NCBI GenBank assembly: GCA_018436595.1
Contig: JAHDLC010000032.1
Span: 1-43,551, forward strand
Reading direction: 5' to 3'
Length of the DNA: 43,551 bases
Source of the DNA: Synergistaceae bacterium
GTDB lineage: Bacteria; Synergistota; Synergistia; Synergistales; Aminobacteriaceae
Every line of letters starts with the position of its first letter. Positions within the stretch are counted from its first letter, which is position 1. Shown in pieces: positions 31,918 through 35,760 of the stretch. The notes under the pieces were generated by a model. That model had not been told where the DNA came from. It was given only the letters and a program-made list of their open reading frames with translations, and did no database searches. The position numbers and the translations under genes are program-made.

Positions 31918-32718
31918 CTATTTCCTCGGGCGCCGGCCGTGCCTGCTCCACATCCTGTCGGCCTTCTCGAGCTGTTCGTGGGTCAGCATCCCGCGGAATT
32001 CGCCGTAGGTTCCCGCCATGGCGAGGGCTCCTTCAGAGAGAATATCCACGGCCTTTTCGGCGGTCTTGCCGATCATCCCGTCATCCATTGTTCCGTCCCG
32101 GAGGGCGGCCCGGCCTTCCTTCAGCACGGCCAGCAGCTTGCCCATCCGCTCCTGCATGCCAGGGGCCGAATCTTTAAAGAGTTTTTCGGCCTTCTCCCGC
32201 TGTTCTTCCGTCAGGTCCAGGAAATCACGCCTGAAATGGGGATGTTTCCCGGGAAAATCCGCAATCCGCTGCTCCGCCCGTTTCTCCAGGAGGGCAAGGA
32301 CATTCTCCACCTTGGCGCGCTGTTTTTCGTCCAGCATCCCGTACAGGTCCGCAGCGGCCCGGAGGGCTCCCTCCGCCACCTCCAACAGTCCGGGGCGCGC
32401 AGCCGCAAGGGCTTCCCCGGCCTTTTTTCCGTCGAAGGGCTCAGCACCGGAAAACAGCATACGGGCCTCCCCCCGAAGACCGAACAGAACCCTGGCCGCA
32501 GTCCATTTCTGCTCCCGCAGCTTCTCCAGTATGCCGTCCGCCTTTGCCCACTGCTCTTCAGTGAAATCCAGCGGGTTGACCGCCCGGAACAGTTCCGCCC
32601 TGAAGGACGGCTCTCCGCTCCTCCACCGCCCCGGAGCCCCCCAGGCCAGCGCTCCTCCGAGAAGAACCAGGACCGCCGCTGCCAACAGCCCCGTGGTAAA
32701 TATCGATCGTTTTTTCAT
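31918..32718 (-). CDS. Spy/CpxP-like periplasmic protein with duplicated LTxxQ-type domains
   Basis: 266 residues from the ATG at 32716-32718 (GGAGGGAGG 8 bases upstream; an earlier in-frame start has no site). Signal peptide about 1-30 (IFTTGLLAAAVLVLLGGALAWGAPG split across its core). The mature protein has four helical motifs of the LTxxQ type: LDFTEEQWAKAD, GMLDEKQRAKVE, LDLTEEQREKAE and GMLTHEQLEKAD. A normal Spy or CpxP is about 160 residues with two motifs, so this looks like two fused copies. Spy-type proteins are periplasmic chaperones, and CpxP restrains CpxA. It is divergent from a CpxR/CpxA-like pair, which supports such a role. Confidence 0.8.
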   Translation of the reverse strand: MKKRSIFTTGLLAAAVLVLLGGALAWGAPGRWRSGEPSFRAELFRAVNPLDFTEEQWAKADGILEKLREQKWTAARVLFGLRGEARMLFSGAEPFDGKKAGEALAAARPGLLEVAEGALRAAADLYGMLDEKQRAKVENVLALLEKRAEQRIADFPGKHPHFRRDFLDLTEEQREKAEKLFKDSAPGMQERMGKLLAVLKEGRAALRDGTMDDGMIGKTAEKAVDILSEGALAMAGTYGEFRGMLTHEQLEKADRMWSRHGRRPRK

Positions 32719-32848
32719 GTGTTCTGCCTCCCTCCGCAAGATGCCGGGGTGTTCCCCGGTGCGGCAGGATCATACACCGGAGAGCATGAAGGTGCCCTTC
32801 AGACAATCCGCAGGAACATCAAGAAAAGTAAACCTCTTCTCCCCCTTC

Positions 32849-32863
32849 TTTACCAACCTTTAC
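32849..32863 (-). promoter_or_regulatory. CpxR-type binding box
   Basis: On the minus strand GTAAAGGTTGGTAAA, an exact match to GTAAA-N5-GTAAA, the CpxR consensus known from Enterobacteria. It lies between the Spy-like gene and the cpxR-like gene. A further single GTAAA is at 32828-32832 on the plus strand. Its centre (32856) is about 42 bases upstream of the start predicted from the TATAAT at 32886-32891, the position used by activators that touch sigma factor. Confidence 0.75.
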
Positions 32864-32885
32864 CCCCCGACCCTTCCCGCTGTCG

Positions 32886-32891
32886 TATAAT
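32886..32891 (+). promoter_or_regulatory. -10 element of the cpxR-like promoter
   Basis: Consensus TATAAT, with no recognisable -35 at 16-18 bp (GC-rich spacer), as expected where an activator replaces it. Transcription would begin near 32898. Confidence 0.6.
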
Positions 32892-32952
32892 GGCTTCAGC
32901 GCCGGGAAGGTTATTGTCCCGGCCGATTCATGCACGAGAGGAGGCGATGGCC

Positions 32953-33651
32953 GTGCATACCCTTCTTCTGCTCGACGACGACAGGGAGCTCTGCGACCTG
33001 CTGACGGACTACCTGAAGCCCGAGGGATTCGAAATCCTCACCGCCCACGACGGCAACACGGGACTGGCGGCCGCCCTGAACTTCCCGTCCCTGGACCTCA
33101 TTCTGCTCGACGTGATGCTCCCGGGGAAAAACGGTTTCGACGTCCTCCGGGAACTGCGAGTCCATTCCGGGGTTCCCGTCCTCATGCTCACCGCCAAGGG
33201 GGACGAAGTGGACAGGATCGTGGGCCTCGAACTGGGGGCTGACGACTATCTGCCCAAGCCCTTCAACCCCCGGGAGCTCCTGGCCCGCATACGGGCCATC
33301 CTCCGCCGGAAAGACTCCCCCGCTGCCCCCAACGCCCATGAGCGGCTTGTCTCCGGGGACATCGAACTGGACCCCGCCCGGCGGACAATCCGCGCGGGAG
33401 GAGCGGACATCGACCTCACCACGGTGGAATTCAAGCTCCTGGAAGCCCTTCTCCGCACCCCGGGCAAGGTGGTCTCCCGGGATGCCCTCTCCCGGGCCGC
33501 CCTGGACCGTCCCCTCTCCCCCTTCGAGCGGAGCCTGGACGTCCACATGAGCAACCTTCGGAAAAAACTCGGCCCCTGCCCTGACGGATCGCCCCGGATC
33601 AGGACCCTCAGGAGCGAAGGATACCTCCTGGCATGCGAAGCTACACACTGA
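32953..33651 (+). CDS. OmpR-family response regulator, CpxR-like
   Basis: 232 residues from the GTG at 32953. An ATG 6 bases earlier (32947) is only 2 bases from AGGAGG, while the GTG is 8 bases from it and gives the usual beginning MHTLLLLDDD. Receiver domain about 1-120: acidic pocket Asp 8-10, phosphoacceptor Asp 53 in LLDVMLPG, switch Thr in MLTAKGDE, Lys in LPKPF. C-terminal winged helix about 130-228 with SLDVHMSNLRKKL recognition helix and LRSEGYLL. Divergent from the Spy-like gene and followed by a sensor kinase overlapping its end by 19 bases. Confidence 0.88.
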   Translation: MHTLLLLDDDRELCDLLTDYLKPEGFEILTAHDGNTGLAAALNFPSLDLILLDVMLPGKNGFDVLRELRVHSGVPVLMLTAKGDEVDRIVGLELGADDYLPKPFNPRELLARIRAILRRKDSPAAPNAHERLVSGDIELDPARRTIRAGGADIDLTTVEFKLLEALLRTPGKVVSRDALSRAALDRPLSPFERSLDVHMSNLRKKLGPCPDGSPRIRTLRSEGYLLACEATH

Positions 33652-34994
33652 AGCTCTTCTGGTGGTTCTGGCTCACCGCCGCCGTGGCGGTCGTTGCCAG
33701 CCACATGATAGGCAAGCTCGCCGAGGAGGAGCAGTTCCGGAACCGGGGGGAGACCATGCGGGAAATCGCCGCCCTCTATGGCGAAAAAGCCTCCTCCACC
33801 CTCGCCCGAAACGGCAGGGAGGCAGCCCTGGACTACATCGCCGGGCTGCAGCGCACCATCCGCATCACCGGTTTTCTCTTCGAAGAAAATGGAAAGGAAA
33901 TGCTGGGCCAGCCTGTCCCGGACTACATCCACGCCATCCTCGCCGAGGCCCGGAAGAAGAACGGACCGGCGAGCACCTTCGAACGGGGGCGGCCTGTCTT
34001 CGCCGTTCCGCTGGAGTCCTTCCCGGGACACTACTTCGCCGGGGCCCTGCCGAACCTCTTCAGGGAAAAGAGTTCCGCCGCCACTCTCTACCGCCTTCTC
34101 GCAGCCGTATTTGCCGCCGCCCTTCTCTCGTGGATCCTGGCGGTCAGGCTCACCCACCCTCTCAAGGGACTGGGAAAAACCATGAGGAAATTCGCCGCCG
34201 GGGCCCTTGACGCCCGGGAAGAGCGGGCAGCCCGACGGAAGGACGACATCGGCACCCTGGCGCGGGACTTCAACGCCATGGCCGCCAGGATCGAAGAACT
34301 GCTGAAGGGACAGCGGAGGCTCCTTGCCGACGTGTCCCACGAACTGCGCTCCCCCCTCACCCGTCTCGGCGTGGCCCTGGAGCTCGCGAGAAGGCACATC
34401 CCGGAGGAAGCGGCCGGGGAATATGAGAGAATGGAGAACGAGCTGGAACGGATGAACGCCCTCATCGGCTCCCTGCTTCAGCTCTCGAGACTCGACGCCC
34501 TCGACAGGCCCGAAAACCGGCAGACCATGGACCTCTCGGCCCTCGTGGGGGAGATCGCCGAGGACGGCGAATTCGAGGGGGCCCCCCACGGCAGGGGAGT
34601 ATCCGCGGACATCCTGCCCGGAGTATCCTATTCCGGCGACCCCGCCTTACTTCGGAGCGCCGTGGAAAACCTGGTCCGCAACGCCCTCCGCTACTCCCCC
34701 GAAGGGGGAACGGTGGACGTATCCCTTTCGAGGCAAGGCGGAGCCGTCCGCATCCTCGTGGAGGACAGGGGACCGGGAGTGCCCGATGAGGAACTGGAGC
34801 ACATCTTCACTCCCTTCCACAGGGTGGAGCAGGCCCGGGAACGGACGCTCCCCGACGAAGGCTGCGGTCTCGGCCTCGCCATCGCGGGACGGGCGGCGGC
34901 CCTCCACGGAGGCACCGTCACCGCCAGGAACAGGCCCGAAGGAGGCCTTGCCGTGGAAATTCTGCTGCCGGAAGACCGGCCGGAAAAAGACTGA
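33633..34994 (+). CDS. Sensor histidine kinase, CpxA-like
   Basis: 453 residues. Membrane segment 1 about 8-24, periplasmic loop about 25-150, membrane segment 2 about 152-172, HAMP about 173-225, dimerisation helix with the phosphorylated His 236 in DVSHELRSPLTRL, and ATPase domain with N box NLVRNALRYSPEGG, G1 DRGPGVPDEEL and G2 GCGLGLAI. The order and the short periplasmic loop match CpxA. Overlaps the response-regulator gene by 19 bases. With the Spy-like protein it makes a likely envelope-stress circuit. Confidence 0.87.
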   Translation: MRSYTLKLFWWFWLTAAVAVVASHMIGKLAEEEQFRNRGETMREIAALYGEKASSTLARNGREAALDYIAGLQRTIRITGFLFEENGKEMLGQPVPDYIHAILAEARKKNGPASTFERGRPVFAVPLESFPGHYFAGALPNLFREKSSAATLYRLLAAVFAAALLSWILAVRLTHPLKGLGKTMRKFAAGALDAREERAARRKDDIGTLARDFNAMAARIEELLKGQRRLLADVSHELRSPLTRLGVALELARRHIPEEAAGEYERMENELERMNALIGSLLQLSRLDALDRPENRQTMDLSALVGEIAEDGEFEGAPHGRGVSADILPGVSYSGDPALLRSAVENLVRNALRYSPEGGTVDVSLSRQGGAVRILVEDRGPGVPDEELEHIFTPFHRVEQARERTLPDEGCGLGLAIAGRAAALHGGTVTARNRPEGGLAVEILLPEDRPEKD

Positions 34995-35006
34995 GGAGGA
35001 GACATC

Positions 35007-35204
35007 ATGCCGGGAAGGACACGGGCGAACATCGCCCCGGGAATGAAAGTGAAGGTTGTGAAGAAGGAAGACCAGGGAACGGGAAAGCTCACCGAAGGCA
35101 TCGTGGAAAGCCTGCTGACCAAAAGCCCCCACCACCCGCGGGGCATCAAGGTCCGCCTCGTGGGCGGCGAAGTGGGAAGGATGCAGGAAATACCGGAAGA
35201 ATAA
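35007..35204 (+). CDS. YwbE-family small protein
   Basis: 65 residues, full length for the family (DUF2196). GTRANIAPG-like GRTRANIAPGMKVKVVKKED and LTEGIVESLLTKSPHHPRGI are the conserved blocks; the small SH3-like beta barrel is probably RNA- or protein-binding, but no function is established. GGAGGAG precedes the ATG, 12 bases after the kinase stop, so it may be co-transcribed. Confidence 0.85.
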   Translation: MPGRTRANIAPGMKVKVVKKEDQGTGKLTEGIVESLLTKSPHHPRGIKVRLVGGEVGRMQEIPEE

Positions 35205-35241
35205 AGCTGCCCTCAAAAAAAAGCGCAAGGAGCGTGCTGCC

Positions 35242-35760
35242 ATGAGAAGCGCGGAAGAAAAAGCGGAATCCCGGAGGGCCGTCCTCGAACAGCTCGGCCG
35301 GATGGGCATTTCCTACGAGATGATCGAGCACGAAGCGGCCTATACGGTGGAGGACATTGACCGGATCGGCTTCGGCGAACACGTGACCGTCTGCAAGAAC
35401 CTCTTCGTCCGGGACCAGAAGAAAAAGCCCTCCCACTGGCTCGTGGTGGTGCACAAGGACAAACGGGCCGACCTGGACAGCCTGGCGGAGCAGCTCGGCA
35501 CAAAGCACCTCAGCTTCGCCTCCGCCGACCGGCTGAAACGGTACCTCGGCCTCGCCCAGGGGGAGGTCACGCCCCTCGGCGTCCTCAACGACGCGAACCA
35601 TGAAGTGACCGTGGTCTTCGATCAGGACCTCAAGGGGCTGGAACACCTGGGCGTGCACCCCAACGACAACACGGCCACCCTGATCCTCTCCTACGACGAC
35701 ATCCTCAAGTTCGTCACCGGACAGGGCAACCCCGTCCGGCACATCACCGTCAGGGGATAG
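35242..35760 (+). CDS. YbaK/ProX-like aminoacyl-tRNA deacylase
   Basis: 172 residues, one YbaK/prolyl-tRNA editing domain. Conserved: YEMIEHEAAYTVEDID at the start, KNLFVRDQKKKPSHWLVVVHKDK (substrate-pocket Lys/Asn), LGVLNDANHEVTVVFDQDL and HPNDNTATLIL. These enzymes hydrolyse mischarged tRNAs such as Ala-tRNAPro. AAGGAG is 9 bases before the ATG. Convergent with prfC; the two stops are 18 bases apart. Confidence 0.88.
   Translation: MRSAEEKAESRRAVLEQLGRMGISYEMIEHEAAYTVEDIDRIGFGEHVTVCKNLFVRDQKKKPSHWLVVVHKDKRADLDSLAEQLGTKHLSFASADRLKRYLGLAQGEVTPLGVLNDANHEVTVVFDQDLKGLEHLGVHPNDNTATLILSYDDILKFVTGQGNPVRHITVRG

What the first reader, a model, noticed from the sequence alone, without database searches (positions are those of the whole stretch)
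32719..34994. Cpx-like envelope-stress circuit with an exact CpxR box outside Proteobacteria
A Spy/CpxP-like gene diverges from a CpxR/CpxA-like pair and the gap holds GTAAA-N5-GTAAA exactly (32849-32863). The box sits near -42 from the predicted start of the cpxR-like gene, ideal for class II activation. If the organism is a Synergistota member, both circuit and recognition sequence are conserved across phyla.
Basis: partly seen in the sequence, partly recalled or inferred. Interest (0 to 1): 0.7.

Follow-up and report, generated by a model that had tools for sequence, protein, structure and literature searches.

The report
Cpx envelope-stress circuit in Synergistota
A bacterium of the phylum Synergistota carries a stress-sensing gene circuit of the same kind as the Cpx system of E. 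coli, and its control region holds the same DNA "address label", which is also found next to the same genes in distant members of its phylum.

Summary
The exact GTAAA-N5-GTAAA box is at 32849-32863, on the minus strand, so it reads TTTAC-N5-TTTAC towards cpxR. Its centre lies 42 bp upstream of the start predicted from a conserved TATAAT. The host is a Synergistota member.

The regulator groups with E. coli and P. aeruginosa CpxR, apart from OmpR, BaeR, CreB, PhoB and RstA. Upstream of Synergistota orthologues the box is strongly enriched: exact in 5 of 24 lineages (shuffles 0.017) and within one mismatch in 10 of 24 (shuffles 0.40). It is absent upstream of 14 other OmpR-type regulators. An unbiased scan of 16,384 spaced repeats ranks overlapping versions of this repeat first.

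Corrections:
- The exact box is species-specific; genus mates carry one mismatch.
It is GTCAA-N5-GTAAA in relatives, a variant that P. aeruginosa CpxR selects in vitro.
- The Spy-like protein is two CpxP units fused in tandem.
- CpxA's sensor domain is not recognisably that of E. coli.

Binding, transcription start and stress response remain untested. I found no published Cpx system in Synergistota.

The parts
31918..32718 (-). Spy/CpxP-like periplasmic protein, 266 aa, signal peptide, two tandem CpxP-like units (LTXXQ-type motifs near residues 53, 130, 170 and 246)
   Evidence: Pfam LTXXQ 30.7 bits, above cut-off; first half aligns to whole E. coli CpxP, second half also, and the halves align to each other (hhalign E 9e-8, 2e-6, 4e-11)
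32818..32832 (+). Operator site A, ATCAAGAAAAGTAAA; the most conserved block of the gap (GTCAAGAAA[AC]GTAAA in G004 and three genomes of another genus)
   Evidence: invariant TCAAGAAA-GTAAA in 6 genomes of 2 genera; relaxed motif GTMAAGAANNGTAAA has one genome-wide hit in each of three relatives, always here; GTCAA-N-GTAAA is a CpxR HT-SELEX motif (PMC12802237)
32849..32863 (-). Operator site B, exact GTAAAGGTTGGTAAA box of the finding, overlapping the place of the missing -35 hexamer
   Evidence: exact match; one mismatch in G001 and G004, two in another genus, same position; 31 bp from site A
32886..32891 (+). TATAAT -10 element of the cpxR promoter, within invariant GTCGTATAATG
   Evidence: no -35 hexamer
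32953..33651 (+). CpxR-like OmpR-family response regulator (alternative start ATG 32947)
   Evidence: receiver and winged-helix domains; best NCBIfam model CpxR, 236 bits; 49% identity to E. coli CpxR; CpxR clade
33633..34994 (+). CpxA-like membrane histidine kinase (HAMP, HisKA, HATPase), overlapping the regulator gene
   Evidence: best model Legionella CpxA, 273 bits over the full length; E. coli CpxA, probability 100 from HAMP to the end; two hydrophobic segments near residues 8 and 155

Best explanation
This is a Cpx-type envelope-stress circuit in a Synergistota bacterium. The kinase senses misfolded protein or other envelope damage and phosphorylates the CpxR-like regulator. The phosphorylated regulator binds two opposed operators (A and B) in the shared gap. 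From site B, which covers the position of the missing -35 hexamer, it activates its own gene. From the pair it activates the divergent gene for a double-length CpxP-like chaperone, which binds misfolded protein and damps the kinase. Shown here: gene families, gene layout, CpxR-clade placement, and conservation of the box in the cpxR control region across families of the phylum. Inferred: binding, activation, the inducing signal and the feedback role of the chaperone.
For: Regulator in one supported clade with E. coli and P. aeruginosa CpxR, apart from OmpR, BaeR, CreB, PhoB and RstA. It scores higher against the CpxR model (236 bits) than P. aeruginosa CpxR does (202 bits), and P. aeruginosa CpxR is known to bind the GTAAA-N5-GTAAA box (PMC12802237, PMC5063474). 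Box enrichment upstream of Synergistota orthologues: exact 5/24 against 0.017, within one mismatch 10/24 against 0.40 in shuffles; overlapping versions of this repeat rank first among 16,384 tested. None of 14 other OmpR-type regulators has a box within one mismatch. GTMAAGAANNGTAAA occurs 15 times in 21 genomes, 6 of them in the cpxR control region; the reversed control gives 4. LTXXQ genes in the phylum mostly sit beside this pair. The E. coli locus has the same divergent layout, with a box 56 nt upstream of cpxR on the cpxR strand. Where spy heads the operon (G179, G180), box-like repeats lie upstream of spy instead.
Against: No binding or expression data. More than half of the lineages tested lack a box within one mismatch upstream of the regulator. 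The sensor domain of the kinase does not match the E. coli CpxA periplasmic domain in Pfam or hhalign. The system is patchy: 44 of 185 genomes at the threshold used, missing from two of five genomes of its own genus. Only one other exact box exists in the genome, so any regulon is small or uses looser sites.
Confidence: 0.85

Rival explanations
1. The pair is a Cpx-like two-component system autoregulated through the box, but it senses something else (for example metal or redox stress), and the Spy-like protein is a metal- or stress-binding periplasmic protein rather than a CpxP-type brake.
For: Sensor domain unlike E. coli CpxA; the Spy-like protein also hits the Metal_resist family; several related kinases in other families share only the cytoplasmic part.
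Against: The kinase matches the Legionella CpxA model over its full length; P. aeruginosa CpxS also lacks the Pfam CpxA sensor domain and still works in a Cpx system (PMC12802237); E. coli CpxP itself also hits Metal_resist weakly.
Confidence: 0.3
2. The exact box at 32849-32863 is a chance match; the functional operator is only the neighbouring site A.
For: Site A is better conserved; site B carries 1-2 mismatches in all relatives.
Against: Site B is alignable at the same place in two genera, sits where an activator is needed at a promoter without a -35 hexamer, and an opposed site 31-32 bp from the plus site recurs in two genera of another family; chance expectation of an exact box in the gap is 0.0001.
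Confidence: 0.12
3. The system was transferred from Proteobacteria together with its control region, so conservation of the box says nothing about deep ancestry.
For: Patchy distribution in the phylum; E. coli CpxR nests among Synergistota sequences with weak support.
Against: Synergistota sequences form several deep lineages that mostly follow genera, with only 49% identity to E. coli CpxR; no plasmid record has a regulator match over 60% identity.
Confidence: 0.2

Closest known systems
CpxP-CpxRA of Escherichia coli K-12 (NC_000913, 4103602-4106320)
   Same: Divergent cpxP and cpxRA, overlapping regulator and kinase genes, exact GTAAA-N5-GTAAA in the gap; regulator 49% identical
   Different: Single CpxP unit of 166 aa instead of a tandem pair; recognisable CpxA periplasmic domain; box orientation and distance to the start differ
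Cpx system of Pseudomonas aeruginosa (PA3204-PA3206)
   Same: CpxR that diverged about as far from E. coli yet binds the same box; kinase without the Pfam CpxA sensor domain
   Different: Gene order cpxR-cpxP-cpxS on one strand; single CpxP unit
Granulicella tundricola (Acidobacteriota) Spy-regulator-kinase operon, NC_015057
   Same: Same three gene types outside Proteobacteria, regulator in the same clade
   Different: All on one strand, single short Spy, no GTAAA box found upstream

Membership tests
Cpx envelope-stress system | Response regulator of the CpxR clade | tested here: met
   Tree, 95/97 support, apart from OmpR, BaeR, CreB, PhoB and RstA; long branches make the finer order unsure
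NCBIfam CpxR equivalog NF008199 (enterobacterial CpxR) | Regulator passes the curated cut-off (341 bits) | tested here: not met
   236 bits; but experimentally studied P. aeruginosa CpxR scores 202, so the cut-off delimits enterobacterial-type CpxR, not the Cpx system
Cpx envelope-stress system | CpxA-type kinase with periplasmic sensor | tested here: inconclusive
   HAMP-HisKA-HATPase part matches E. coli CpxA, full length matches the Legionella CpxA model below its cut-off; no Pfam CpxA_peri match, as in P. aeruginosa
Cpx envelope-stress system | Linked CpxP/Spy gene with LTXXQ motifs | tested here: met
Cpx envelope-stress system | GTAAA-N5-GTAAA box in the cpxP-cpxR control region, conserved in relatives | tested here: met
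Cpx envelope-stress system | Regulator binds the box; induction by envelope stress | not testable with these tools
   needs the bench
Spy/CpxP chaperone family | LTXXQ domain above Pfam cut-off | tested here: met
   30.7 bits against 24.3
Spy/CpxP chaperone family | Cradle-shaped dimer fold | not tested

The most novel reading that the evidence does not exclude
The CpxR recognition code and the CpxP-CpxRA circuit predate the split between Proteobacteria and Synergistota, and in Synergistota the CpxP dimer has become one chain by tandem duplication, so that one gene makes a complete cradle.
Probability: 0.3. Interest if true: 0.7.

Novelty: new variant of a known kind. Interest (0 to 1): 0.52.

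Why it matters
A 2025 study describes Cpx systems as spread through alpha-, beta- and gamma-Proteobacteria (PMC12802237). Finding the circuit together with its DNA recognition sequence in another diderm phylum makes the age of envelope-stress control testable and gives a way to predict stress regulons in little-studied anaerobes. The fused CpxP offers a natural single-chain version of a dimeric chaperone. The bare presence of the genes is less surprising, since an Acidobacteriota relative is already annotated as Spy plus two-component system.

Tried and rejected
Genome-wide box counting as evidence: rejected, 2 exact boxes against 6 in the reversed control. The second exact box (G000 contig C10:47472-47486) upstream of a TolC-like outer-membrane efflux gene looked like a regulon member and is kept in two genus mates. 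However, the whole region is 95% identical between them and the box follows a GC-rich stem like the T tail of a terminator, so it is only a candidate. NCBIfam cut-offs as a test of Cpx-system membership: rejected after the P. aeruginosa control. Literature search for Cpx in Synergistetes gave one irrelevant paper.

Full report
What is there. The window holds a gene for a Spy/CpxP-like protein (31918-32718, minus) divergent from a response regulator (about 32953-33651, plus) and a histidine kinase (33633-34994, plus), with a gap of 228-234 bp. The box GTAAAGGTTGGTAAA lies at 32849-32863 on the minus strand. It is exact and is one of two exact copies in the 3.2 Mb genome. The host is a Synergistota member: the nearest named contigs are Synergistales and Synergistaceae MAGs, which match genomes of the same family.

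The promoter. Alignment of the gap with two genus mates and three genomes of another genus shows three conserved islands: TCAAGAAA[AC]GTAAA (window 32819-32832), a degenerate CTT..CAA..C.TTAC that is site B, and GTCGTATAATG. TATAAT at 32886-32891 predicts a start near 32898 and puts the centre of site B at -42. There is no -35 hexamer, which fits an activator-dependent promoter (inference). The first island is a second operator, site A, on the plus strand: ATCAAGAAAAGTAAA here, GTCAAGAAA[AC]GTAAA in G004 and the other genus. GTCAA-N-GTAAA is one of the motifs that P. aeruginosa CpxR selected in vitro (PMC12802237). Sites A and B face each other, 31 bp apart (32 in one relative). A similar opposed partner at 32 bp occurs in two genera of a distant family (G181, G176), though not in most others.

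Is the box more than chance? From 185 genomes of the phylum, 44 have a close kinase. Taking one sequence per genus or paralogue lineage (24) and 250 nt upstream of the regulator, GTAAA-N5-GTAAA is exact in 5 and within one mismatch in 10. Dinucleotide shuffles give 0.017 (maximum 1) and 0.40 (maximum 3). Without naming a motif in advance, I scored all 1,024 pentamers as direct repeats with 16 spacers: the top entries are AAAGA-N5, TAAAG-N5 and GTAAA-N5, overlapping versions of one 10-bp repeat, about G[TC]AAAGAANT. The representatives were chosen by first occurrence, not by box content. Among 14 other OmpR-type regulators of the same genus none has a box within one mismatch. The stricter pattern GTMAAGAANNGTAAA occurs only 15 times in 21 whole genomes, 6 of them in the cpxR control region; the reversed pattern occurs 4 times. 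In three genomes (G037, G040, G041) the cpxR site is the only one in the genome. That pattern was chosen after seeing the sites, so this count shows how specific it is and is not an independent test.

The proteins. The regulator is 49% identical to E. coli CpxR. A maximum-likelihood tree puts it in a clade with E. coli, P. aeruginosa, Agrobacterium and Granulicella regulators (95/97), away from E. coli OmpR, BaeR, CreB, PhoB and RstA and most Synergistota paralogues; long branches leave the inner order uncertain, and one paralogue (par_L018) falls inside the clade on a long branch. It misses the NCBIfam CpxR cut-off (236 against 341 bits), but so does the experimentally studied P. aeruginosa CpxR (202). 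The kinase matches E. coli CpxA from the HAMP domain to the end, not in the periplasmic part; P. aeruginosa CpxS also lacks the Pfam sensor domain. The Spy-like protein is double-length: each half aligns with E. coli CpxP (E 9e-8 and 2e-6) and the halves with each other (4e-11). The four LTXXQ glutamines are invariant in eight aligned Synergistota proteins, and paired LTXXQ hits in one frame recur in several genera.

Association. LTXXQ genes were found in 20 of 185 genomes, mostly beside this kinase-regulator pair. In G179 and G180 spy lies upstream of the regulator on the same strand, and box-like repeats sit upstream of spy rather than of the regulator. A paralogous lineage uses GCAAA-N5-GCAAA.

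Mechanism. Best supported is an autoregulated Cpx-type circuit with a feedback chaperone. Shown: families, layout, clade and cis-element conservation. Inferred: binding, activation from site B, the inducing stress, and the damping role of the chaperone, by analogy with E. coli and P. aeruginosa (PMC12802237).

Verdict. It is a known kind of system in a phylum where I found no description of it, with a fused CpxP and opposed twin operators as variant features.

Noticed in passing
G000 contig C10:47472-47486 (L001:1501-1515): Second exact GTAAA-N5-GTAAA box, 106 bp upstream of a TolC-like outer membrane efflux gene, identical in two genus mates; it overlaps the T-rich tail after a GC-rich stem, so it may be part of a terminator.
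   Followed up: partly
L115:3079-3103, L116:3390-3414: A paralogous CpxR-like lineage (which also includes G000 C10:36477-37145) carries GCAAA-N5-GCAAA in tandem upstream in some members, suggesting a diverged recognition sequence after duplication.
   Followed up: partly
L062 / L078 (G013): The CpxR-like gene next to an exact box appears split between two reading frames and the kinase has an internal TGA: a decaying copy or assembly error.
   Followed up: no
L122:1501, L123:1501, L124:1501 (G105, G106, G108): GTAAAGAACCGTAAA conserved near what looks like a flagellar gene block (a FlgK-like protein start, named from memory, not searched) in three genomes.
   Followed up: no
window 35007-35760: Just downstream of the kinase lie a YwbE-family gene (DUF2196) and a YbaK-like tRNA-editing gene on the same strand.
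   Followed up: no
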